A DNA stretch of 64,000 nucleotides. It comes from Microvirga sp. SRT01 (GTDB lineage Bacteria; Pseudomonadota; Alphaproteobacteria; Sphingomonadales; Sphingomonadaceae). The DNA lies in the NCBI GenBank assembly GCA_018139225.1, contig JAGSNX010000005.1:1-64000 (forward strand), written 5' to 3'. Shown one piece after another: positions 29 to 63,811 of this stretch (its first letter is position 1; each line of letters opens with the position of its first letter). Both the position numbers and the translations under genes were made by a program. The notes beneath the pieces are model-generated. The model did no database searches. It worked only from the letters and a program-made list of their open reading frames with translations, and was not told the origin of the DNA.

Positions 29-433
29 TCAGCCGTTGCCTGTCTCAAGACCCAACACCGACTTCTTCAACACAATCACCCACAAGCAGACACTCGCGGG
101 CTCCTTGGGCCTTCCCAACTTCGGCCGTTTGTTCATGTAGGCATATCGTCGCGGACGGGATCGCATGGATATAGAGGATGCTGTCAGCCTTACGCGAACC
201 GCTCTCCGCCAGAAGCATGTCGGGCTTTGAGGATGGCCGCTTATCCGCAGGGTCGGAACGCGGTCTGATAGGGCGACGGAGCTGTCGAGCCGGCTGTGTT
301 GCTCGTCGAAGGCAAAGCGATTGGCTGCGGCACTGGATGTGAAGCGCCCGAGCAACACGCCGCTACTCTCCCGTACCGTCCACCCGCCACCGACATCCCG
401 GCCAACGACAATGATTTCGTGCTCGGCCATCAT
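29..433 (-). CDS. Small hypothetical protein whose C-terminal half reads through IS-end debris
   Basis: No function is recognised with confidence. The first ~45 residues (IIVVGRDVGGGWTVRES, then a short helix ending FAFDEQ) look like a compact beta-hairpin-plus-helix protein of the DUF2188 kind. The ATG at 431-433 shares its last base with the stop of the upstream small membrane gene (TGATG), which suggests translational coupling. Roughly residues 60-86 are encoded by the sequence at 176-252, which resembles the left end of the IS6-family element found at 28565, so the reading frame after about residue 55 is probably not native. The final part contains MNKRPKLGRPKEPA, an AT-hook-like basic stretch that may be a leftover of another gene. 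The start and N-terminal half are plausible; the C-terminal half is doubtful. Confidence 0.35.
   Translation of the reverse strand: MMAEHEIIVVGRDVGGGWTVRESSGVLLGRFTSSAAANRFAFDEQHSRLDSSVALSDRVPTLRISGHPQSPTCFWRRAVRVRLTASSISMRSRPRRYAYMNKRPKLGRPKEPASVCLWVIVLKKSVLGLETGNG
176..252. mobile_element. Probable diverged remnant of an IS6-family left end
   Basis: The stretch GCTGTCAG...ACGCGAAC...GCTCTCC...ATGTCGGGCTTTGAGG follows the same order and spacing as the left end of the complete IS6-family element at 28565 and of the truncated copy at 63581. Similarity fades before the transposase stop codon would be reached, so only an end fragment remains. The resemblance was found by eye, and the copy is clearly more diverged than the other two. 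Confidence 0.42.
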
Positions 434-4198: not shown

Positions 4199-4767
4199 CA
4201 GCGCGCGGCGGCGTCCAAAGTGCGGTTCAGGCCAAGCACGTTCACGTGCGGCTCTCCGAGGATGGAGGTTTCGGTCGATCGGGCAACGATCCCACGCACC
4301 ACATCGACCGACATTGCTCGAACGCGCGCAATGCGGGGTGCCTGAACCAGGGCGGCGGCTGGCGACAGATCAGGGTCGAGACCTGAGCCACTGGCAGTGA
4401 CGAGGTCGGCCGGCAGCGCGCCGGTCGCGCCTTCCGCCTGCCGCCTGGCGACATCGGGTTTGACCCTATCGACCAGCGCCTGAGACGCTGGGCCAAGGTT
4501 TGATCCCGACGAAGCGAGGCCGTCATAACCCTTGCCGGCCGCCGACGGCCGGGTCTGGAAGTAGCGGTCCGAGGTGAAGGCCTGGCCGACGACGGTCGAA
4601 CCGATCACCTTGCCGTTTGCGCTCACCAGGCTGCCGTTAGCCTGCGAGGGGAATATCATCTGCCCGATGCCGGTCATTGCCAGGGGGTACAGGATCCCAA
4701 GAAGGGCTGCGAAGAGGATCGTCATGACGATCGCGGGCCGCAGGGCGGAAGTGAAGTCTTTGCCCAT
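4198..4767 (-). CDS. kdpC: K+-transporting ATPase subunit KdpC
   Basis: KdpC is the single-span subunit that stabilises the KdpFABC potassium pump. The 189-residue protein starts MGKDFTSALRPAIV, has one N-terminal membrane helix (VMTILFAALLGILYPLAM), then the conserved periplasmic part: NGSLV, IGSTVVGQAF, YFQTRPSAAGKGYD, SGSNLGP and, near the end, VNVLGLNRTLD. The ATG at 4765-4767 is 11 bp after the kdpB stop and was preferred to the much longer upstream open frame, which only shadows kdpB. Its stop overlaps the kdpD start. Length and motifs are normal. Confidence 0.95.
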   Translation of the reverse strand: MGKDFTSALRPAIVMTILFAALLGILYPLAMTGIGQMIFPSQANGSLVSANGKVIGSTVVGQAFTSDRYFQTRPSAAGKGYDGLASSGSNLGPASQALVDRVKPDVARRQAEGATGALPADLVTASGSGLDPDLSPAAALVQAPRIARVRAMSVDVVRGIVARSTETSILGEPHVNVLGLNRTLDAAAR

Positions 4768-4778
4768 GATGGTTGTCC

Positions 4779-6815
4779 TTATGCGAGGCCGATGCCACCG
4801 ACGACAAGGTCGATGAGCTTGATGCCGATGAAGGGCGCAATGAGGCCGCCGAGGCCGTAGATGGCGAGGTTGCGCGCCAGTAGCGGTCCCGCCCCCATGG
4901 GCTTGTAGGCCACGCCCTTGAGCGCCAGCGGCACCAGCATCGGGATGATGATCGCGTTGAAGATGATCGCCGACAGGATCGCGCTCTGCGGGCTGCCGAG
5001 CGCCATGACGTTGAGCACGCCCAATCCCGGATAGAGCGCGACGAACATCGCCGGGATGATCGCGAAATACTTTGCCACGTCGTTGGCGACGGAAAAGGTG
5101 GTGAGCGCCCCGCGCGTCATCAGCAGCTGCTTGCCGAGGCCGACGACTTCGATCAGCTTGGTCGGGTCGCTGTCGAGGTCGACCATGTTGCCCGCCTCGC
5201 GCGCGGCCTGCGTCCCGGTGTTCATCGCCACGCCGACATCCGCCTGCGCCAAAGCAGGTGCGTCGTTGGTGCCGTCGCCGCACATCGCGACCAGCTTGCC
5301 GCCCTGCTGTTCCTTACGGATCAGCGCCAGCTTGTCCTCGGGACTGGCTTGCGCAAGGAAGTCATCGACGCCCGCCTCGGCGGCGATCGCGGCGGCGGTC
5401 AATGGGTTGTCGCCGGTGATCATCACCGTGCGGATGCCCATCTGCCGCAATTCGCCGAAGCGTTCGCGGATACCCGCCTTGACCACGTCCTTGAGGAAGA
5501 TCGCGCCGAGCAGGCGGCCATTCTTGGCGACCGCCAGCGGGGTGCCGCCAGCACGCGAAATCTCGTCGGTGATACGGCGAAGCTCGGTCGCGGCAGCCGT
5601 TTCGCCGACGCCGGGGTTGGCCTTCAGGATCGAATCCACCGCGCCCTTCTGGACCAGCATGTCCGGCGTCTGCACGCCCGATATCCGGGTCTGCGCGGTG
5701 AACGGGATGACCTCGGCACCCGCCGGCAGCTCGGTGGTGCGAACGCCGAACCGGTCGCGGGCGAGCACGACGATCGAGCGCCCTTCCGGCGTCTCGTCGG
5801 CGAGGCTGGCGATCAGCGCCGCCTCCGCCATCTCGGCGTCGGTCGCGCCGCCGACGCTGCGGAACTCGCTCGCCTGCCGGTCGCCGATCGTGATCGTGCC
5901 GGTCTTGTCGAGCAGCAGCACGTCGATGTCGCCTGCCGCTTCAACCGCGCGACCCGACTTGGCGAGGACGTTGAAGCGTACCAGCCGGTCCATCCCGGCA
6001 ATGCCGATCGCCGACAGCAACGCGGCGATGGTGGTCGGGATCAGCGTGATGAGCAGCGCCGCGAGCATAGCGACCGGGATCGATCCGCCGGCATACGCGG
6101 TGAAGCCGGGGATGGTGGCGACCGCGATCAGGAAGATGATCGTCAGCCCGACCAGCAGCAGCGTCAGTGCGACCTCGTTCGGTGTCTTCTGCCGCTCCGC
6201 GCCTTCCACGAGGGCGATCATGCGGTCGAGAAAACCCTGGCCGGGCATGACCGTCACTCTGACGCGGATCTCGTCCGAGATCACCCGCGTGCCGGCGGTC
6301 ACCGCCGACCGGTCGCCGCCTGCCTCGCGGATCACCGGCGCGCTTTCGCCGGTGATCGCCGCCTCGTTGACCGAGGCCACGCCGGATACGACTTCGCCGT
6401 CCGATGGGATCAGATCGTTCGTTTCGACCAGCACGATGTCGCCCACCTTCAGCGCGCTGGCAGGCACAGTCTCATGCTCCCGGCCGTTGCCCTTGAGGCG
6501 CTTGGCGGTCAGCTCCGCCTTGGTGGCGCGCAGCGATGCCGCCTGCGCCTTTCCGCGCCCCTCGGCCAACGCTTCGGCAAACGTGCCGAAGAGGACAGTC
6601 AGCCACAGCCAGACGACCAGCTGCAGCTTGAAGCCTGTTGTCAGCCCGTCATTGCCGATGATGAGCAGCACGGTCATCAGCGCGGCGACAGCCGCGGTGA
6701 CGAACATGACCGGATTGCGGATCAGCTCCGCCGGATTGAGTTTGACGAACGAGGCCTTGATTGCCGGCACGACGAGGTCAGCCGTGAACAGGCTTTTCGA
6801 TTGGGTCTTTGCCAT
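4779..6815 (-). CDS. kdpB: K+-transporting P-type ATPase subunit KdpB
   Basis: KdpB is the ATP-hydrolysing P-type subunit of the high-affinity potassium pump in the inner membrane. The 678-residue protein carries TGES (155-158) in the actuator domain, the phosphorylation motif DKTGT with D303, the hinge [16 protein letters not shown], and membrane helices including the [18 protein letters not shown] segment typical of KdpB. Length fits the family. It lies between kdpA (13 bp upstream) and kdpC (11 bp downstream). All motifs needed for catalysis are present. Confidence 0.97.
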
Positions 6816-9740: not shown

Positions 9741-10656
9741 CGTTTTTTTGGCCTTCATCCGTCGCTTCGGTTTAGCTCGTTCCGAGAATCAGGCCTCTTA
9801 CGACTGCCTTGCTGTACATCACTTGCGGTGACCGTACTTGAAGCGAAAGGTGCAACGTTCCTTTCGAACCGGTCCTACATGCTTGTACATTCAGGGTGCT
9901 GAAGAAGGAGTCTAAGGAAAGCCAAAATGGCTGCGAAACGTCCACTACAAGGCACCCACGCTCGACAGCCATCTTCCACCGCTCTGCTGCGAATAGCCGC
10001 CTTGATCGATTGATTACCGGTAAAATTTAGGTGTGCCTCAAAAGGACCAAGTTTAATTCTGCCGTCTTTGAGGCAAACCGCGACAGCTTCCAATTAACAA
10101 CCTCGTCCGGCCGGAGTTTCGTGGCTTCAGGGTGCCCGGTTTGTGATCCTGACAACGTAAGTTCGAGCTTTCGACGACACGCGCCTCGGACGGCTTTCCC
10201 ACGTCTTGCTGACCCAATTGCGGCCATTCACGCTTCCGATTTCCCTTCTCAATTTCGGTCATTCGTTCATCTGTACCATCACCATGGTGGGCAGCAGGTG
10301 AAAGCGCTCTTCTGTCTTCCGACAGAGCCGGCCGACTGCTGGTAAAGCAGCCCAGTACCCCGCTGCGGCTGATCAGCCATGGCATGAAGCCAATCGGCTG
10401 CGGCGGAGCCGACTACAACCCATACCGAAGCTGGCTCTTCCGCAGGGCCGCTCCAAGTTTACGATGGGGCTTGACGGTGTAGCGAATGCAGAGGCAAAAG
10501 GTGCAGGTCGCTCCGACGCACGTCCGCGACTGAATTGATTTGAAGGTTCGTTAAGCCGACTCGGTTACACGCTTGGACGAGCGGAACCGACATCGGATCG
10601 AGAGCATTCTTACCAACGGACGCTCCAAGGCGTCCCACAGGCCGCAAGGCAACAAC
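9741..10656. other. Non-coding gap of ~0.9 kb
   Basis: Short open frames occur on both strands, but none has a ribosome site, codon bias or a recognisable domain. The sequence is less GC-rich than the kdp genes. The motif CGGTCATTCGTTCAT near 10257 recurs in degenerate form in other gaps of this window (for example near 15640 and 26290), suggesting old decayed repeats. No RNA gene was recognised. Confidence 0.4.
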
Positions 10657-10682
10657 GACCCCCGGCGGCAACGTCGGGGGTC
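10657..10682 (-). terminator. Hairpin after the Avs-like gene
   Basis: GACCCCCG and CGGGGGTC form a perfect 8-bp stem around a 10-nt loop, two bases past the stop codon of the minus-strand gene ending at 10685. No strong U-run follows on that strand, so it may be a weak intrinsic terminator or an mRNA 3'-end stabiliser. Confidence 0.6.
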
Positions 10683-10684
10683 CT

Positions 10685-13600
10685 TCATTTCAGCTTGGCG
10701 TCGACCAGCCGTCGGTCCTTGTGTTTCACCCCGCTTTTCAGCCAGCGGATCCCGAGCGCCCACATGTCGAGCGAGGCAGTCCCATCGCGGCTCCGCATGT
10801 CCCAGATTGATCGCCAGACATACGGCCATCCCGGCATCGTGAACGCCGCCTCGTCCAACCAGCGCTCACCCAGGCGACGAAGGCCGATCGTGTCCCTGCC
10901 CCCCTTGGCACGGATCGCGGAACGCCAGATCAGGCTCCAGTTTCGATCCGAGAAGTCCGTCTGCGATAGCCACCGATGTGCCCTCGCGACGATCGCCGCT
11001 TCGGTCCAGGGAGAAGGATCGACGAGTTCGCGCCACTTCATAACGCGCAGCCAACCCTTTCCCCCGCCCGCTTCGGAGCCAAGCCACGCGTCCACGGAAG
11101 CGATCACATCGTGCGTCCCAAATCTCTTGGGTGCCACCCGCAGGAGCGCCGAGAAGACGAGGTACCATCTCTTGGGCTCGATCAGCGGCAAGGCCTCGAG
11201 GCCCAGTTCGATGAGCCGGGCGATGTGGGCGTCGTCCGTCTCGACGTCGAAGGCAGAGCGCCAGAGCAGGCCGAATCCGTATCGCTCGGCGGGCCCCTCC
11301 AGCCAGGAGCGCGCGCAGCCCAGCGCCTGATCGCGCGCGGCGCCGTCCAGCCTCAGGAGCAGCGCCGCGCAGAGATGCACCCACGCTCCGTTGTCATGCG
11401 GCTTCAGCACGGCGGCGACGGCCGGGTCACGCAGCGTCCGATCGTCGAGAAGAGCCTCTCCTTCGGGATGAATGCTCCAGACCTTCATCCACCGCTCGGC
11501 GCCACCATTGGCGCGCAGCCAGATCGTCATCCCCGCGGCGATGCCCGGGCGCCGTGCGAAGCGCTTGTCGATGGCTCGCGCCCTCAGCAGGACGCGGTCC
11601 CATCGATCGTGCGACGGTCCCGACGTAAGGAGCCATGCCGACGCGGCGTCCAGCAGTTCCGCCCAGCCGGACGGCGACTCGTGCTTGGCAAGGCCCTCCC
11701 ACAGCGACGGCCAGGATCTTCCGAGGGCATCCGAGCGGATCAGCGACATGCCCTGGTCGACCAGCGCCGCAGCGACAGCCGTCTCCGCGCGGAGGCCCAG
11801 CGCATAAGAGCAGAGGGCGGCACGACGGCGCTCCACGCCACGGCCGGACGTCAGGAAGTCGAGCGCCAAACGGGTGAGGATCTTCGTCGGGAGCCGCGCG
11901 CGGCGAGCGCCCTGCCAGACGCGGAACCATGCATCGTCATCGAGGTCCAAACCGGACAGCCGCTTCGAACAGTGAGCCTGGAACGCCTCCAGCTCGCCCG
12001 GCCCGGGATCCGACGCGATCCATGACGGGATCACCGGCAGCCATCCGGGATGGTCGTCGTGGCGAAGCAGCCAGGTGGTAGAGAGTGCACGCGCCGTTGA
12101 GATCGCGCCGGATGATCCGTCCTCGAGCAGGTAGCCGGCCACGCGGGACCAGCCGACATGCTCGCCCGGCGTCCTGCGCAACCACGTCAGACCCTGCGCC
12201 TCGATGGCGTTCCTCGTCTCATCGGGAGCCGCTTTGGCCAGCGCGAGCCAGACGTGCGCCCAGCTTCGATGCCCGCCCGACGAGCTCTCCAGCCACTCAG
12301 CCCCGAACCGCAGCGCCGTTAGCCGCTCAGCGGACTCGGTCGCGAGCAGCAGACCCTCGAAGACGAAGGCCCAGCCGAGATGCTCCGGGTCCGCCGTGGC
12401 GAGCCACTCCCGGCCGATACCCTCCAGATCCGCAACCGCGTCGCGGTCGGCACTCCGACGGGCCTCCTGGATGGCCGGGCCCCAGACATGGGACCACCCT
12501 TTGAGCTCGACGGGCGCAGACCGCAGGCGACGGACGGCTAGGGCCAGCAGTTCACCGCGCTCCCGCGGGTCGGCGTGCTCGAATACGTCGGGCCAGACCC
12601 TCGTCCAGCGCTCGTCCCCCACGTCGGACGCCTCGACCCAGTCGCGCCCGACCCCAAGCAGAAGACCGACCTCTAGGTCCCCGCCGTGGATCGCCTGATC
12701 GAGCAGACGACGCCAGATCATGTCCCAGCCGGGTGTCTCCGGACCCGCCAAGAGGCTGCTCCCCTCGGTGAGACCGAGCCAGCGCATGCCCTGCCTCCGC
12801 AGGGCGGCTGGCTGCCCCCTCCCCGTATCGATCAGCGCCGCCCAGACCCGCGGCCACGACCCCCGGTCCCGTCCTGCAGCCAGCAGACGCTGCGACAGCA
12901 CGTCCGTCTCCGCGCAGTGCCCGTGTCCGTCGATCAGGTTCGATAGGATCGAGCCCCAGCCAAACTCGTCATCGGGCGTCCGCTGCAGCCAGTCGACGAC
13001 GATGCCCCTCACCCGTTTGGACGTCTCGCCCTGAGCGAGGCCGTTCATCAGGCGCGACATTCCCCTCAGCTGCGGGGCGTCGCGCGACAGAGCGGCGATC
13101 TCGTCGAGCAGGGCCTCGCCGCCCTCCCTCGACACGTAGTCCATCGCCAGCGGCGCCCAGTCGTGCCACGGCAGGGGATCTCCCCAGCCCGCGAGCCGCC
13201 GCAGACAGCCGGAGACCGAGGCGACCGCGCGGTCACGGAAAGGACCCTCTTCGGCCAAAAGGAAATGGCAGGACAGCCGGAGTCCTCTGACCGGCTCCTG
13301 TACCTCGTCGATGGCGGTCACCAAGAGATCCGCGGGTGACGGGTTCAGCCGAAGGTCGAGAAGGCGATCGAGAGCCAGCCAGACCGGAAGGTCCTCGATG
13401 GGGTGCAGTCCGTCCGCGACTCCGTTCGCGTAGATCGAGGAGAGCACCTCCCGCAGCTCCGGTCGGATGAGATCGATGCGCGCGCGCAGCGCCGGGTCGG
13501 TCTCGCGCCCTCCCCGGTCGCGTTCGCGAGCGAGCCGACTTATCGCCCAAAAGGGGGCGTACCGTACCTCCGGTGGTCGTTCGTCGTTCACGAGGTCGGC

Positions 13601-15322
13601 CGCCAGCGATGCGGCGAGATGCCGCTTGCGCCATGGCCGGTCCGTGATCCGCCCGAACCACTCCCGGTAGATCGCGTCGGCGAGATGCGGATGGGTCAAC
13701 CTTATGCCACTCGACGACTGCGCCGTGAATTGAAAATGCGACTCCAGCTCCTGCAGCCGTATCAGCGCACTCTCCAGCGTCGGATGCTCATGCTGACTGC
13801 GGAGCAGCTCCGACATGGGATAGTCGACGTAGAGCCGGTTGAGCGCCAGGATGCTGGCGATCGCGTCGAGGACCGGGCCGTCCTGGCGGCTGTCGTCGAA
13901 GGATCTGATCCGATCCCGAAAGCGCCTGGCGAACTCGGCGATGCTGCCCTTGGTCCACTCGAACAGCTGCTGGACGAGGAGGACGTTGCCCTCCATCGGC
14001 TCAACCGACCTCCCGGTCCGAAGGCGATACCATTCGGCGAGTTCGAGAAAGTCGGCGTCCGTCTCGTTCGGCATGTCGAAGCCGTCGAAGTCAAGCTGAC
14101 CCCCGCAGGCCTCCTCGGCGGACGCCCGCTGCTCGTTCGGCCCGCAGCAGAGGAGGAGCGGTGACCGAGCCGTCTCCCCGGCACCGACGCAGATGCTCTC
14201 CCATTCTGCCTGCGCATCGGTGACCGACTTGATAAACTCGGACTGCCGCTCGGCCGTGAAGGGATCGTCGAGCACCAAGACGACGGCGCGCCCCTCCGCC
14301 GCCATCCGGCCAGCCCACCGCACGGCCGGCCCGAGCAGCTCGGGGCGGTGGCCGACCCAGAGCACCAGCCGGTCGGGGTTCTGCGCATGCAGCCTTGCCG
14401 CCACATGCAGAAGCGCGGCGCTCTTTCCGCACCCCGACCGGCCGGAGATCCAGAACACGGGCAGCTTGTAGAGCGGGCGTTCGCCCGCTAGCCGCTCTTC
14501 GCAGGCGCGCTCGATGCGATCATAGACCGCGCGCTTGGCCAGCCTGCCTTCGCGAAGATCGGACACGGACAGACGTTCCCCAATCCGGACCGCCCGCCTG
14601 TCGTCGTTCTCGCAGACGACTTGGTCGGGCGCCCTTTCCTCGCTGCTCCACAGGCCGAAGCGCCGCTCCACGGTCGCCGCCGCCAACCGGAGCGCGCGGA
14701 GCTCGGCGCGGAACTCGTCCACGACCTGATCAAGAACGCCGCCCGATGCGGCGAGGAAGCGCGACATTGCCCTGTCGAGCCTCTCGAGAGGATCGGCATC
14801 CCTGAACTCCTCGATGAGGATCTTTGCCGCCTCGAGCCGCGGAGAGGGAGTGACCGCGATGTCGACCCGCTCGCGGAACACGGCCAGCGCGTCGCCGTCC
14901 GCTCCTTCCGGGCTCCAGCGCGCGAGACTTCCGGTCCAGTCGCCGAGCGTCCGCGTGGCGGCCTGAACCCGGTAGCGGAGCAGCGGCAGCAGGTCCGGTG
15001 TCCGCTCCTTCGCGAGCAGGTGCACACCCCAAAGCTCGTCGAGCGCCGATCGAAACGCCGAACTGGAAAGGGTCCGCTTCGCCTGCGTGATCAGGAAGCC
15101 GTCGGAGCTCTCCACGATGTCGGAGAGCACCTCGATGAACGCCGCGCCGCCCTGTCCCCCAGCCTCCTGTCGCACGATGACGTGCAGTGCGCTCGCCAAT
15201 TGGAAGTCGAAGCCGGCCATGGCAGCGAGCCCGCCGATGGCGTGCCGCTTCTCGGACCAGAAGCGGCGCAGAGTGAGAAAGGACTCGAGAGCCCCGGCGG
15301 CATCACCACTCAGTACTGCCAT
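10685..15322 (-). CDS. Nuclease-STAND NTPase-repeat protein (Avs-like antiphage candidate)
   Basis: The 1545-residue protein has three parts. Residues ~35-130 look like a PD-(D/E)xK nuclease of the DUF4297/Cap4 kind: GFDFQ (37-41), E64, D68 and the QAK motif (80-82) after a beta strand. Residues ~285-520 form a STAND-type NTPase with Walker A GRSGCGKS (294-301) and Walker B VVLVLDD (347-353). From about 770 to the end run many ~42-residue helical repeats carrying WL...GW..VW signatures (for example GWSHVWGPAI, SWAHVWLALA, GWPYVWRSIW). Nuclease-STAND-repeat order is that of Avs antiviral sensors, in which the C-terminal repeats recognise phage proteins and switch on the nuclease. The gene stands alone between non-coding gaps, as defence genes often do. 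A different NTPase function cannot be excluded. An AGGAG ribosome site lies 11 nt before the ATG. Confidence 0.72.
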   Translation of the reverse strand: MAVLSGDAAGALESFLTLRRFWSEKRHAIGGLAAMAGFDFQLASALHVIVRQEAGGQGGAAFIEVLSDIVESSDGFLITQAKRTLSSSAFRSALDELWGVHLLAKERTPDLLPLLRYRVQAATRTLGDWTGSLARWSPEGADGDALAVFRERVDIAVTPSPRLEAAKILIEEFRDADPLERLDRAMSRFLAASGGVLDQVVDEFRAELRALRLAAATVERRFGLWSSEERAPDQVVCENDDRRAVRIGERLSVSDLREGRLAKRAVYDRIERACEERLAGERPLYKLPVFWISGRSGCGKSAALLHVAARLHAQNPDRLVLWVGHRPELLGPAVRWAGRMAAEGRAVVLVLDDPFTAERQSEFIKSVTDAQAEWESICVGAGETARSPLLLCCGPNEQRASAEEACGGQLDFDGFDMPNETDADFLELAEWYRLRTGRSVEPMEGNVLLVQQLFEWTKGSIAEFARRFRDRIRSFDDSRQDGPVLDAIASILALNRLYVDYPMSELLRSQHEHPTLESALIRLQELESHFQFTAQSSSGIRLTHPHLADAIYREWFGRITDRPWRKRHLAASLAADLVNDERPPEVRYAPFWAISRLARERDRGGRETDPALRARIDLIRPELREVLSSIYANGVADGLHPIEDLPVWLALDRLLDLRLNPSPADLLVTAIDEVQEPVRGLRLSCHFLLAEEGPFRDRAVASVSGCLRRLAGWGDPLPWHDWAPLAMDYVSREGGEALLDEIAALSRDAPQLRGMSRLMNGLAQGETSKRVRGIVVDWLQRTPDDEFGWGSILSNLIDGHGHCAETDVLSQRLLAAGRDRGSWPRVWAALIDTGRGQPAALRRQGMRWLGLTEGSSLLAGPETPGWDMIWRRLLDQAIHGGDLEVGLLLGVGRDWVEASDVGDERWTRVWPDVFEHADPRERGELLALAVRRLRSAPVELKGWSHVWGPAIQEARRSADRDAVADLEGIGREWLATADPEHLGWAFVFEGLLLATESAERLTALRFGAEWLESSSGGHRSWAHVWLALAKAAPDETRNAIEAQGLTWLRRTPGEHVGWSRVAGYLLEDGSSGAISTARALSTTWLLRHDDHPGWLPVIPSWIASDPGPGELEAFQAHCSKRLSGLDLDDDAWFRVWQGARRARLPTKILTRLALDFLTSGRGVERRRAALCSYALGLRAETAVAAALVDQGMSLIRSDALGRSWPSLWEGLAKHESPSGWAELLDAASAWLLTSGPSHDRWDRVLLRARAIDKRFARRPGIAAGMTIWLRANGGAERWMKVWSIHPEGEALLDDRTLRDPAVAAVLKPHDNGAWVHLCAALLLRLDGAARDQALGCARSWLEGPAERYGFGLLWRSAFDVETDDAHIARLIELGLEALPLIEPKRWYLVFSALLRVAPKRFGTHDVIASVDAWLGSEAGGGKGWLRVMKWRELVDPSPWTEAAIVARAHRWLSQTDFSDRNWSLIWRSAIRAKGGRDTIGLRRLGERWLDEAAFTMPGWPYVWRSIWDMRSRDGTASLDMWALGIRWLKSGVKHKDRRLVDAKLK

Positions 15323-15700
15323 GACCCGGACCGACCGCTCCTAACCGGGCAAGCAGACCAACCCGTTCACTCACTGTTCTAGGTCGCAGTTTGTTATCGT
15401 CAATGCGATTGGGGCCACTTCGTCGGCCTTCAACATTCCCGATTTTCATCCAGGTAGGTGATTGCCGGGTTCCACTCGGGGGTGCTCTTGGCCGTGACAG
15501 CAGCATAGGCGCCCTGCCAGCTAGCGACTAGAGCGAACCGGCACCTTATATGAGTGCTGCTCCCAACGCTTCTGAGCTCGCTTACTCAAGACCCAATACC
15601 GGACCTTCAACGGCATCTCTGCGGTGCTCGAAAACGGACGCCCGTTCATCTGAGCATCTGCAAAGTTCGCTTATCGTCTCCGGTGGCGCGATACGGCGTG
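15323..15700. other. Non-coding gap upstream of the Avs-like gene
   Basis: This holds the promoter region of the minus-strand gene at 10685-15322 and the 3' flank of the LysR gene. No convincing open frame, RNA gene or repeat was seen apart from a degenerate CCCGTTCATCTGAGC motif near 15645, similar to motifs in other gaps. Confidence 0.4.
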
Positions 15701-16603
15701 TCAGGTGGTGTGCCTGGACCTGCTCCTCAGATCGTCGAGCAGCCATGCCCCCGCGCGGCCTAGCGGCCGGCTACGCATGTGAGCTGCGTAGATCATGAGC
15801 CCGCCTGGCGGCGCGACGTCGTCTTCGATCGACAGCTGGACCAGCTCTCCCGCGGTAAGCAGCGGTGATACGAGCTCCTCGGGCATGCGACACCAGCCAA
15901 ACCCAGCCCGCAAAAAGTCCATCCGCCGGCCGAGCTCCACGAAACGCCAGGTCTGAGAGCTGAGCACGCCGTAGCTGGGGCCATCCGGCACCGTAGCATC
16001 CGACAGGACCAGCTGCACATGGGTGTCGAGATCGCCACGGGAGACTGGTCCCTGTGCCTGCCCCAGAGGGTGCGACGTCGCGACGACGGGAATCATGTTG
16101 AGGCCGAACAATGGCAATGCCGCAACGTCTTCGGGAACGGCGGGCAGCAGCACGCAGAACGCCAGCGCAGCGTCGCCGTTACGCAGGCGCCGCTCGGCGC
16201 CACGCAGCCCCTCGGTGGAAAAGCTCACCGGCAAATGGGGAAAGGTCGACCGAAGCGCGTGCAGGCTGTCGATGAAGGCAGTAGTCGGAACTAGCGGATC
16301 AATCGCGACTGTGAGCTCCGGCTCCAGTCCCTCGCGGGTTCCCGCGGCGAGTGCCTCGAACTGCTCAGCGCTTGAAAGAACCACACGAGCCTGCCTGACC
16401 AGCGCAAGGCCGATATCGCTTAGCTTTGGTCGATGGCCGCTACGGTCAAAGAGCGTGACGCCCTGGACTGCTTCGAGGTTTGCCACCGCCTGGCTGATCG
16501 CAGACTGGGCACGTTGAAGCTTGCGCCCCGTAGCCGAGAAGCTGCCCGTCTCGGCAATCGTCACCAGCACACGAAGCTGGTCAAGCGTCAGGTTGCCGAT
16601 CAT
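15701..16603 (-). CDS. LysR-family transcriptional regulator
   Basis: The 300-residue protein has the standard LysR layout: N-terminal winged helix-turn-helix (LTLDQLRVLVTIAETGSFSA, then AQSAISQAVANLEAVQGVTL) and a substrate-binding domain from about residue 90. It is transcribed away from azoR with 234 bp between the start codons, the usual arrangement for a LysR regulator and its target. Two overlapping inverted repeats lie 13-33 bp upstream of its start. It probably responds to a quinone- or azo-type electrophile or oxidant, judged only by its neighbour. Confidence 0.88.
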   Translation of the reverse strand: MIGNLTLDQLRVLVTIAETGSFSATGRKLQRAQSAISQAVANLEAVQGVTLFDRSGHRPKLSDIGLALVRQARVVLSSAEQFEALAAGTREGLEPELTVAIDPLVPTTAFIDSLHALRSTFPHLPVSFSTEGLRGAERRLRNGDAALAFCVLLPAVPEDVAALPLFGLNMIPVVATSHPLGQAQGPVSRGDLDTHVQLVLSDATVPDGPSYGVLSSQTWRFVELGRRMDFLRAGFGWCRMPEELVSPLLTAGELVQLSIEDDVAPPGGLMIYAAHMRSRPLGRAGAWLLDDLRSRSRHTT

Positions 16604-28564: not shown

Positions 28565-29400
28565 GGTGCTGTCAGTCTAACGCGAACTGCTCTCCCCAGG
28601 ATGGATGTCGGGCTTTGAGGCTAGTCGCCTAGCTGGCGAGCACCTGCCACTCCGCAAGAGCTGCGGAGCGTCGTTCGCGGTAAGTCTGTCGGTCGGTGAG
28701 ATGGCGCTCCAGGCTGAAGTGGTTGTGGACGTTGGCGTGCACGGAAGCGAACTTCTGCAGCGTCTTCATCTGCCTGAAGCGTAGCATCGCCCTCTCTCGT
28801 CGTCGGAACGGCAGGTGGGAGTTCTCGACCCGGTTGTTGGTCCAGCGACCGATCTCCTGCTTCTCCGCATTGCCGAGGTCGTTCATGGCTGCACGGTAGG
28901 AGCGCAGGCCGTCCGTGGTGATCGCCTCTGGTGAGCCGTGGCGCTTCAGCGCCTTCTTCATGAAGGTGAGAGCTGCTGCCTTGTCCCTGGTCTTGGTAAC
29001 GTAGCTCTCCAGCACCTCGCCTTCGTGATCTACCGCTCGCCAGAGGTAGACCATCTCGCCATTCAGCTTCACGTACATCTCGTCCAGGTGCCAGCGCCAG
29101 TGGCGGAAGCCACGCATGTGGCTCACCCTCTTCCTCCGCACCTCGCCTGCAAACAGCGGCCCAAACCTGTTCCACCACAGCCGCACCGTCTCGTGGCAAA
29201 TGTCGATCCCACGCTCGAACAGCAGGTCCTCCACGTTGCGCAGGCTGAGCGGAAAGCGGACGTACATCAGCACCACCAGCCGGATCACCTCCGGCGAGGA
29301 GTTGAAGTAGCGGAACGGACTGGCTGGCTTGCGCGGGCGGGGCATGCGGCGCCCTTACAATCCCCGAGTTACCGACGGGTGCATTTGCTTTGACAGAGCC
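28565..29400 (-). mobile_element. Complete IS6-family insertion sequence
   Basis: The element is ~836 bp. Its ends GGTGCTGTCA (left) and GGCTCTGTCA (right, read inward) are imperfect inverted repeats, and it contains one transposase gene on the minus strand. The right flank is a second, diverged IS right end (29401-29484), so this copy sits inside or against an older relative. No 8-bp target duplication is visible, which suggests later deletion or recombination, common for this family. Confidence 0.85.
28629..29345 (-). CDS. IS6-family transposase, full length
   Basis: The 238-residue DDE transposase carries an N-terminal helix-turn-helix (YVRFPLSLRNVEDLLFERGI), the first catalytic Asp in HLDEMYVKLNGEMVYLWRAV, the second in ITTDGLRSY and the Glu in NNRVENSHLPFRRRERAM, all typical of IS6/IS26 relatives. 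It looks intact and potentially active. IS6-family elements move by replicative cointegration and can mobilise the DNA between two copies. Confidence 0.95.
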   Translation of the reverse strand: MPRPRKPASPFRYFNSSPEVIRLVVLMYVRFPLSLRNVEDLLFERGIDICHETVRLWWNRFGPLFAGEVRRKRVSHMRGFRHWRWHLDEMYVKLNGEMVYLWRAVDHEGEVLESYVTKTRDKAAALTFMKKALKRHGSPEAITTDGLRSYRAAMNDLGNAEKQEIGRWTNNRVENSHLPFRRRERAMLRFRQMKTLQKFASVHANVHNHFSLERHLTDRQTYRERRSAALAEWQVLAS

Positions 29401-63386: not shown

Positions 63387-63580
63387 TCAGCGGGCGGCCA
63401 CCATTGTGGCGGCGATCTTCTCCGCGACCATGTAGGCCGGGAAATTGGTGTTGGCGCTCGGCACCGACGGGAAGATCGAGGCGTCAACCACGCGCAGTCC
63501 GCGCACGCCATGGACGCAACCTTGCGCGTCGGTGACGGTGATCGAATCGTCCGGCGCGCCCATCCGGCAGGGACAGGACG
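63387..63580 (-). pseudogene. C-terminal fragment of a second GMC oxidoreductase, cut by an IS
   Basis: Reverse translation gives the end of a GMC enzyme: [33 protein letters not shown], then [16 protein letters not shown] and a stop. The catalytic His codon falls right at the IS junction (63581). Everything upstream of that point, some 470 residues, is missing. The complete GMC gene at 45644 is a different paralogue. The break shows that the island once extended further right. Confidence 0.88.
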
Positions 63581-63811
63581 GGTGCTGTTAGTTTAACGCG
63601 AACTGCTTTTCACAGGATGGATGTCGGGCTTTGAGGCTAGTCGCCTAGCTGGCGAGCACCTGCCACTCCGCAAGCGCTGCGGAGCGTCGTTCCCGGTAGG
63701 TCTGCCGATCGGTAAGATGGCGCTCCAGGCTGAAGTGGTTGTGGACGTTGCCATGGACCGAGGCGAACTTCTGCAGCATTTTCATCTGCCTGAACCGGAG
63801 CATCGCCCTCT
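63581..63811 (-). mobile_element. Truncated IS6-family element, left end and transposase 3' part
   Basis: It starts GGTGCTGTTAG and carries the last ~54 transposase codons (RAMLRFRQMKMLQKFASVHG ... AALAEWQVLAS). Compared with the complete copy at 28565, roughly one base in ten differs by eye, so it is a related but distinct element. Same orientation as that copy. It ends abruptly within the transposase gene. Confidence 0.9.

What the first reader, a model, noticed from the sequence alone, without database searches (positions are those of the whole stretch)
10685..15322. Giant nuclease-STAND-repeat protein: Avs-like defence candidate with unusual Trp-rich sensor repeats
Seen: PD-(D/E)xK-like N-terminus (E64, D68, QAK), Walker A at 294, Walker B at 347, then roughly 17 degenerate repeats with GW..VW signatures. 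Known: Avs proteins have this order and sense phage terminase or portal proteins. The repeat unit does not match the TPR-like pattern I associate with Avs1-4, so this could be a separate branch. It is a solitary gene in non-coding surroundings.
Basis: partly seen in the sequence, partly recalled or inferred. Interest (0 to 1): 0.75.

Follow-up and report, generated by a model that had tools for sequence, protein, structure and literature searches.

The report
Nuclease-STAND immune receptor with Trp-rich repeats
A single bacterial gene appears to encode a large immune receptor, a DNA-cutting domain joined to a molecular switch and a long chain of tryptophan-rich repeats; some relatives in other bacteria have repeat chains that were rebuilt recently, as in fungal immune receptors.

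Summary
ORF 10685-15322(-) is a real 1545-aa gene: an 89% identical gapless copy exists in another Sphingomonas (dN/dS 0.17). It has (i) an N-terminal PD-(D/E)xK nuclease of Cap4 (DUF4297)/LmuA type, inferred through relatives, with E64, D68, Q80 and K82 invariant in nine aligned sequences; (ii) an nSTAND_NTPase5 domain (Pfam E 2e-10); (iii) about 17 divergent ~35-aa units with a W..VW signature, modelled as an alpha-solenoid (pLDDT 77). No PADLOC model matched it. Relatives are rare and patchy; several lie on plasmids or near integrases, AbiE or a CBASS operon, others in plain surroundings; one has C-terminal S1 domains. The window gene lies in a 5.4-kb segment found at different genomic places in two species. 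In two relatives the repeats are near-identical at DNA level, so the array was recently rebuilt; in the window copy it is old and diverged, with about four times the dN/dS of the NTPase. Best reading: a one-gene, NLR/Avs-like abortive-infection receptor with a Cap4-type nuclease and an uncharacterised repeat sensor. Defence is inferred, not shown; the ligand is unknown. New variant of a known kind.

The parts
10685..15322 (-). The gene: 1545-aa Cap4-type nuclease - nSTAND NTPase - Trp-rich repeat protein
   Evidence: ORF; relative 89% identical, gapless, dN/dS 0.167
14753..15250 (-). N-terminal Cap4/LmuA-type PD-(D/E)xK nuclease domain, about residues 25-190 (the C-terminal limit is approximate)
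   Evidence: Relatives match PADLOC LmuA and, near or over the cut-off, Pfam Cap4_nuclease here; hhalign to a 7-sequence Cap4 alignment prob 75.8, E 2.3e-5
15077..15133 (-). Presumed catalytic motif E64-x(3)-D68 ... Q80-x-K82
   Evidence: Invariant in 9 of 9 aligned sequences; D and QxK align with the invariant D and QxK of seven Cap4-type nucleases
14033..14581 (-). nSTAND NTPase domain, about residues 248-430 (Pfam match 248-369)
   Evidence: Pfam PF25199 E 2.3e-10
14420..14443 (-). Walker A, GRSGCGKS, residues 294-301
   Evidence: Sequence; G294, G297, G299, K300, S301 invariant in 7 of 7 aligned sequences
14264..14284 (-). Walker B, VVLVLDD, residues 347-353
   Evidence: Sequence; D353 invariant in 7 of 7 aligned sequences
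13667..13702 (-). Conserved RLTHPHLADAIY, residues 541-552; read as the winged-helix end of the STAND module (inference from recall)
   Evidence: H544 and Y552 invariant in 7 of 7 aligned sequences
10730..12994 (-). Trp-rich alpha-helical repeat array, about residues 777-1531, presumed sensor
   Evidence: Repeat HMM from three relatives, E 3.4e-19; AF2 model of residues 741-1130 all-helical, pLDDT 77
10657..10682 (-). GC-rich hairpin just past the stop codon, possible terminator (the scan lists it on the + strand only)
   Evidence: Pattern scan; 4 such sites in the region against 2.3 expected, so weak
10211..15595 (.). Segment shared at 88% identity with Sphingomonas sp. CROZ-RG-20F-R02-07 at a different genomic place; starts and ends with GACCCA
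   Evidence: blastn; edges
15438..15525 (.). Relic resembling the end of a transposase-like ORF, upstream of the gene
   Evidence: 74% over 95 bp to L023 15689-15783, at the end of ORF L023 15728-16462, read as an IS3-type transposase by recall

Best explanation
A one-gene, NLR/Avs-like immune receptor that works by abortive infection. At rest the long Trp-rich alpha-solenoid and the STAND NTPase hold the nuclease inactive. An invader molecule, most likely a phage protein, binds the solenoid; the NTPase opens and oligomerises with ATP; the N-terminal Cap4-type nuclease domains are brought together and cut DNA, phage and host alike. Shown here: gene, NTPase domain, motif conservation, nuclease homology at family level, helical repeat (model), purifying selection strongest on the NTPase, faster change in the repeats, change of genomic place, defence-type neighbours of some relatives. 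Inferred from known STAND and Cap4 systems: oligomerisation, DNA as substrate, abortive infection, phage as trigger.
For: nSTAND_NTPase5 over the Pfam cut-off in the window protein and 4 of 8 relatives scanned, below it in 3 more, not reported in 1. Nuclease: PADLOC LmuA matches in 7 of 8 relatives scanned, E 0.04 to 3e-6; one relative (G532/L040) over the Cap4 cut-off in the genome search, 28.6 against 26.2 bits; hhalign E 2.3e-5 (for one template) aligning D and QxK. dN/dS 0.26 in 771-1130 and 0.23 in 1131-1545 against 0.06 in the NTPase and 0.11 in 1-245. L010: AbiEii, colicin V and an integrase on a plasmid; L021 and L040: a phage-type integrase nearby; L023: SMODS cyclase and two 2TM effectors about 2.4 kb away; L026: conjugative plasmid. 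Patchy: 2 of 398 sampled phylum genomes by protein, 3 of 398 by profile, the window's own genome included in both. Same cassette at different places in two species. Avs nucleases are activated by ligand-driven oligomerisation (passages read in PMC12198126; PMC12931631).
Against: No experiment. No defence gene beside the window copy and no PADLOC match to the protein. Not all relatives have defence-type neighbours: none was noticed near L002 or L022, though there I looked only at ORF starts and scanned one L022 neighbour, an AMP-binding enzyme. Neither the window protein nor its closest relative L002 reaches Cap4 or LmuA in hmmscan. No solved structure matched the single sequence; the nuclease profile's PDB hits AbpA (E 0.14), LmuA (0.44) and 6vm6 (0.86, Cap4 by recall) are not significant and the other two of five hits are unrelated. 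With a 7-sequence Cap4 HMM only 4 of 9 domain sequences (L021, L040, L002, window) rank above all 1800 shuffles, and in reverse 2 of 7 Cap4 sequences rank above all 1400; a single Cap4 sequence gave hhalign prob 0.6. N-terminal structure model unusable.
Confidence: 0.7

Rival explanations
1. Same receptor architecture, but the trigger is not a phage protein: it guards against plasmids, conjugation or other mobile DNA.
For: Relatives sit on plasmids, one right after a trb conjugation operon, and three near integrases. No relative was found in 50,697 phage records by tblastn at E 0.01 or confirmed in four viral-contig scans.
Against: Living on mobile elements is common for anti-phage genes too; nothing here points to a plasmid ligand.
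Confidence: 0.15
2. The sensor recognises RNA or a translation state rather than a protein: the solenoid and, in some relatives, C-terminal S1 domains bind RNA.
For: Pfam S1 E 3.4e-33 with four stretches in the Enterobacter relative; an S1-like end is seen by eye in the L040 protein, though Pfam did not report S1 there at E 0.01. The repeat model resembles PUF and HAT solenoids among many others.
Against: No S1 match in the window protein. Fold matches are generic: PUF, HAT, TPR and other solenoids mixed, VIA rmsd about 5 to 15 A in the rows shown.
Confidence: 0.1
3. Housekeeping or degenerate protein: the nuclease is inactive and the protein has a regulatory role unrelated to defence.
For: No defence gene beside the window copy; STAND regulators without defence roles exist (MalT, seen in a search listing).
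Against: Catalytic-type residues invariant in 9 of 9 aligned sequences, patchy distribution, different genomic places in two species, Cap4-type domain, CBASS and AbiE near two relatives.
Confidence: 0.05

Closest known systems
Avs (AVAST) proteins, types 1-4
   Same: One protein, N-terminal nuclease, STAND NTPase, C-terminal helical repeats; Avs1-4 are said to use nuclease effectors (passages of PMC12931631; the rest recalled)
   Different: No PADLOC match; NTPase is nSTAND_NTPase5; repeats carry a W..VW signature and no TPR match; ligand unknown. No Avs sequence was compared directly
Cap4 (DUF4297) nucleases, LmuA of Lamassu, AbpA, DUF4297 of HerA-DUF4297
   Same: N-terminal nuclease domain type: GG..A..GF..Q, E..SD and QxK motifs aligned; weak profile hits to AbpA, LmuA and 6vm6
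   Different: There the nuclease is joined to other domains (SAVED in 6vm6) or works with a partner protein (HerA, passages of PMC12198126); here it is fused to a STAND NTPase and repeats
Avs5 (Sir2 - nSTAND3 - TPR/Sel1/PPR repeats)
   Same: STAND receptor with variable helical repeats as sensor (passages of PMC12931631)
   Different: Effector is a Sir2 NADase and the NTPase is nSTAND3
Fungal NLRs with high internal conservation repeats (HET-E type)
   Same: Two relatives have arrays of near-identical units (mean aa identity between units 88% in L022, 374 aa, and 93% in L040, 240 aa); the fungal criterion is over 85% over at least 100 aa (passages of PMC4986451), measured there by the authors' own method
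   Different: Bacterial; an alpha-helical Trp-rich unit, not WD/ANK/TPR; the window's own array is not of this kind (mean unit identity 0.19)
Highly-repetitive prokaryotic WD40 proteins
   Same: Recent repeat duplication in prokaryotes is already described for WD40 (start of abstract; passages of PMC5587647)
   Different: Different fold; the find call on that paper returned 0 occurrences of 'NB-ARC', 'immune' and 'STAND'

Membership tests
STAND NTPase (nSTAND_NTPase5, PF25199) | Profile match over the curated cut-off, with Walker A and B | tested here: met
   40.9 bits against 34, E 2.3e-10; Walker A GRSGCGKS and Walker B VVLVLDD
Cap4-type nuclease (PF14130) | Profile match over the curated cut-off by the window protein itself | tested here: not met
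   Not reported at E up to 1
Cap4-type nuclease (PF14130) | Homology of the domain family to Cap4, with shared D and QxK motif | tested here: met
   hhalign prob 75.8, E 2.3e-5; relative G532/L040 28.6 bits in the genome search but 25.0 in hmmscan, below 26.2; relative L026 25.4 bits, just below. Against: single Cap4 template prob 0.6; HMM cross-tests separate only 4 of 9 and 2 of 7 sequences from all shuffles
Cap4-type nuclease (PF14130) | PD-(D/E)xK fold in structure | tested here: inconclusive
   Model of residues 1-640 has pLDDT 40
Avs | Match to a PADLOC model, Avs among them | tested here: not met
   0 families at E up to 1 for the window protein; Avs4 is in the library, the other Avs types by recall
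Avs | Order nuclease (or Sir2) - STAND - helical repeats in one protein | tested here: met
Avs | Activation by a phage protein (terminase, portal or other) | not testable with these tools
   Needs an experiment
Avs | Place within the Avs clades in a STAND NTPase tree | not tested
   No Avs sequences were fetched and no tree was built
TPR repeats | Match to Pfam TPR models | tested here: not met
   No TPR family for the window protein or the five W-repeat relatives L002, L007, L010, L022, L040. L022 did score over the cut-off for AKAP7_RIRII_bdg and THB with no single passing stretch, taken as artefacts of its identical units
TPR/HEAT/PUF/HAT alpha-solenoids | Same fold in a structure comparison | tested here: inconclusive
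   Many solenoid types score alike: Foldseek best E 4.8e-4, TM-score by query at most 0.47 in the rows shown; VIA Z 13.4 to 17.3 in a mixed list of 50 rows
Fungal-type high internal conservation arrays | Over 85% identity over at least 100 aa | tested here: met
   By relatives L022 (mean pairwise 88%, lowest 76%) and L040 (93%, lowest 85%); not by the window protein (19%). Mean between units, not the authors' own measure

The most novel reading that the evidence does not exclude
A separate branch of bacterial NLR-like receptors (Cap4-type nuclease, nSTAND5, W..VW solenoid) whose sensor is rewritten by repeat-level recombination: in some members whole units are copied and shuffled (102-bp and 408-bp periods in L022, 120-bp in L040), as in fungal incompatibility NLRs, so that specificity can be re-formed within a lineage, while others, like the window gene, have settled into a diverged array. 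Some relatives have further added S1 domains as a possible RNA sensor.
Probability: 0.35. Interest if true: 0.7.

Novelty: new variant of a known kind. Interest (0 to 1): 0.55.

Why it matters
If right, it adds a nuclease-STAND receptor whose sensor repeat has no model of its own in the Pfam and PADLOC copies used here, explains proteins named only 'hypothetical', 'ATP-binding' or 'S1 RNA-binding domain-containing', and gives a bacterial system in which sensor evolution by repeat recombination can be followed and tested with phages in the laboratory.

Tried and rejected
Structure of the N-terminal half: model with pLDDT 40, not used. Viral-contig relatives: 104 candidate stretches but no confirmed relative for A1; no DNA match for P0004 and P0006; 4 stretches, none confirmed, for P0008. 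Phage records: none at E 0.01. E. coli genomes, blastn with the first 3951 bases of the Enterobacter gene: none. Cap4 family in 99 order genomes: nothing, and none of 14 control genomes rang, so uninformative; in 143 genomes of the class of G532: 2. Rfam over the window: no hit. Sigma-70-like promoter scan: none in 10400-15900.

Rows dropped as unrelated or too weak: three of four genomes (G122, G181, G241; I looked only at the G122 frame, L004, which is unrelated), G340 and G356 (L008 seen, unrelated; L009 not inspected beyond ORF lengths), G900 (four stop codons inside) and the G885 match on contig C53, ten of thirteen genomes with short matches at E 2e-4 to 8e-4 (not inspected one by one). 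L002 and the unnamed G861 are the same record (100% over 19,567 bases) and count once. In one search blastn gave three further window-L002 matches (window 176-229, 28565-29318 and 63578-63811, all to L002 4425-5181), which are not the flanks of the segment and were not followed. G148, G794, G833 and G693 were the four of the left-flank matches that I fetched.

Considered and rejected: chance ORF (dN/dS 0.17, close relative); recent amplification of the window array (TRF found no tandem repeat). Excess of amino-acid-changing over silent differences among units: 7 to 0 codons in L040, 10 to 4 in L022, not claimed as positive selection because the numbers are small.

The first script comparing loci failed on file names and was redone. 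Some structure and fold-search calls returned 'not finished' and were collected later. For papers listed by searches I saw titles and abstract starts; passages were read in PMC8195603, PMC12931631, PMC10907252, PMC4986451, PMC5587647 and PMC12198126 and the outline with abstract of PMC12724215.

Full report
OBSERVATION. The minus-strand ORF 10685-15322 encodes 1545 aa. The window's own genome gave one match only. Pairwise dN/dS is 0.167 over the whole gene, so it is a maintained gene, not a chance frame.

NTPase. Pfam nSTAND_NTPase5 matches residues 248-369 with E 2.3e-10. Walker A GRSGCGKS (294-301) and Walker B VVLVLDD (347-353) are intact; G294, G297, G299, K300, S301 and D353 are invariant in seven aligned sequences, the window's included.

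NUCLEASE. The window protein itself reaches no nuclease model. The family does. PADLOC LmuA matches the N-terminal stretch in seven of eight relatives scanned, at E 0.041 (L007), 5e-5 (L010), 1.5e-5 (L011), 7.2e-5 (L022), 0.012 (L023), 4e-6 (L026) and 3.3e-6 (L040); the one without is the close relative L002. Pfam Cap4_nuclease scores 25.4 bits in L026 and 25.0 in L040, both just under the 26.2 cut-off, and 28.6 for the same G532/L040 gene in the genome search. A profile of nine domains against seven Cap4-type nucleases collected here gives hhalign probability 75.8 and E 2.3e-5 (one template, not a database E-value) and lines up GG..A..GF.FQ, E..SDIV and QAK with the Cap4 motifs; D and QxK are invariant in both sets. 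HMM cross-tests are weaker: 4 of 9 domain sequences rank above all 1800 shuffles with the Cap4 model, 2 of 7 Cap4 sequences above all 1400 with ours. Against the PDB, three of the profile's five hits are AbpA, LmuA and 6vm6 (Cap4 by recall), E 0.14, 0.44 and 0.86, not significant alone. A comparison with one Cap4 sequence gave nothing. I rate Cap4-type nuclease homology as likely, not proven by structure.

REPEATS. The C-terminal half is a chain of units with the rough consensus L..A..WL......gW..VW..L. A profile made from three relatives, not from the window protein, finds 18 segments between 777 and 1530. No Pfam repeat family is reported for the window protein; for L022 two odd models (AKAP7_RIRII_bdg, THB) score over their cut-offs without any single passing stretch and are taken as artefacts. 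An AlphaFold2 model of residues 741-1130 from two sequences has pLDDT 77.4 (the five models range from 77.4 to 55.3), pTM 0.62 and 21 helices: an alpha-solenoid, about two helices per unit. Fold comparison returns PUF, HAT, TPR and other solenoids alike, which says no more than that.

RELATIVES. Full architecture with W repeats: L002 (Sphingomonas), L007/L021 (unnamed G650, same class, 1614 aa), L022 (unnamed G885, same genus, 1665 aa), L010 (Enterobacter hormaechei plasmid, 1569 aa), L040 (unnamed G532, same phylum, 1420 aa). Shorter relatives with the nuclease part and an nSTAND match below the cut-off, without significant W repeats (E 0.07 and 0.44): L026 (Agrobacterium plasmid, 950 aa) and L023 (948 aa). 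Leptolyngbya L011 shares the nuclease domain (35% over residues 18-177) with a different NTPase and C-terminus, so the domain is shuffled. Frequency: in 398 sampled phylum genomes 4 match by protein, of which 2 are real including the window's own; by profile 13, of which 3 are strong; in 295 genus genomes 5 match, of which 3 are full-length (G000, G861, G885) and one N-terminal (G868).

NEIGHBOURS AND MOBILITY. L010 has AbiEii, colicin V and an integrase. L021 has a phage-type integrase upstream. L040 has one downstream. L023 lies about 2.4 kb from a SMODS cyclase (PADLOC E 1.2e-114) and two 2TM effectors. L026 sits after a trb operon on a conjugative plasmid. Near L002 and L022 no defence gene was noticed (ORF starts only; one L022 neighbour is an AMP-binding enzyme). 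In the window, 10211-15595 matches L002 9728-15112 at 88% identity while the adjoining flanks do not match; identity falls to background at both edges, and both edges carry GACCCA. The kdp side is conserved in four fetched relatives up to window 9741-9761 and then diverges. No integrase ORF was seen inside the shared segment.

SENSOR EVOLUTION. Between the two Sphingomonas copies dN/dS is 0.06 in the NTPase (246-430), 0.11 in 1-245, 0.26 in repeats 771-1130 and 0.23 in 1131-1545: still below 1 everywhere, about four times higher in the repeats than in the NTPase, which fits relaxed constraint as well as diversification. In L022 Tandem Repeats Finder reports 102 bp x 11.7 copies with a 408-bp higher period; in L040 120 bp x 6.8 at 97% matches; in L010 a 120-bp array of 3.6 copies at 73% and a 294-bp array of 3 copies at 86% in the S1 part; in the window none. 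Units differ at few positions, mostly by amino-acid change: 10 changing and 4 silent codons in L022, 7 and 0 in L040, too few to claim selection.

MECHANISM. By analogy with Avs (recognition of phage proteins, oligomerisation, nuclease dimerisation; passages read in PMC12931631, and PMC12198126) I read it as a one-protein abortive-infection receptor. Steps shown: domains, conservation, helical repeat (model), variability, change of genomic place. Steps inferred: ATP-driven oligomerisation, DNA cleavage, phage trigger.

LITERATURE. Searches for nSTAND_NTPase5 (0 papers), for STAND NTPase with Cap4, anti-phage, nuclease and repeats (0), for STAND with DUF4297 and Avs (1, HerA-DUF4297), for nSTAND with repeat (29, 20 listed), for NLR-like sensors (27, 20 listed), for Avs, STAND, Cap4 and terminase (11), for high internal conservation (3,558, 12 listed), for pattern recognition by bacterial NLR-like proteins (6) and for tryptophan-rich repeat (9,125, the ten listed hold the phrase 0 times) showed me no description of this combination in titles, abstract starts and the passages read. 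The library holds open-licence papers only, so this is weak evidence of novelty. I recall, without a call, that early surveys of STAND defence genes listed DUF4297-STAND fusions; if so, the domain pair is not new and only the repeat sensor is.

Noticed in passing
L010 7950-12659; L040 9295-13557: The Enterobacter relative ends in S1 domains (four Pfam S1 stretches, with a 294-bp tandem array), suggesting an added RNA-binding sensor; a similar end in L040 was seen by eye only.
   Followed up: partly
L022 3745-4953: 102-bp units arranged in a 408-bp higher-order period (three copies, 94% matches), a sign of recent block duplication.
   Followed up: partly
window 10211-10216 and 15590-15595: The shared segment begins and ends with the same hexamer GACCCA in both species; could be a recombination core or chance.
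   Followed up: partly
window 15438-15525: Relic similar to the end of a transposase-like ORF in L023 (15689-15783), upstream of the receptor gene; IS3 family is from recall.
   Followed up: partly
L023 244-2223: SMODS cyclase with two 2TM (SLATT-type) effectors about 2.4 kb from a short relative of the receptor.
   Followed up: partly
L011 7929-13280: Cyanobacterial plasmid protein with the same nuclease domain on a different NTPase and C-terminus: domain swapping.
   Followed up: no
window about 9750: The stretch after the kdp and Gcw_chp genes diverges among Sphingomonas-type genomes (four compared), a possible variable site.
   Followed up: partly
window 176-229, 28565-29318, 63578-63811: Three window stretches match one L002 stretch (4425-5181) at 78-83%: a repeated gene or element, not followed.
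   Followed up: no
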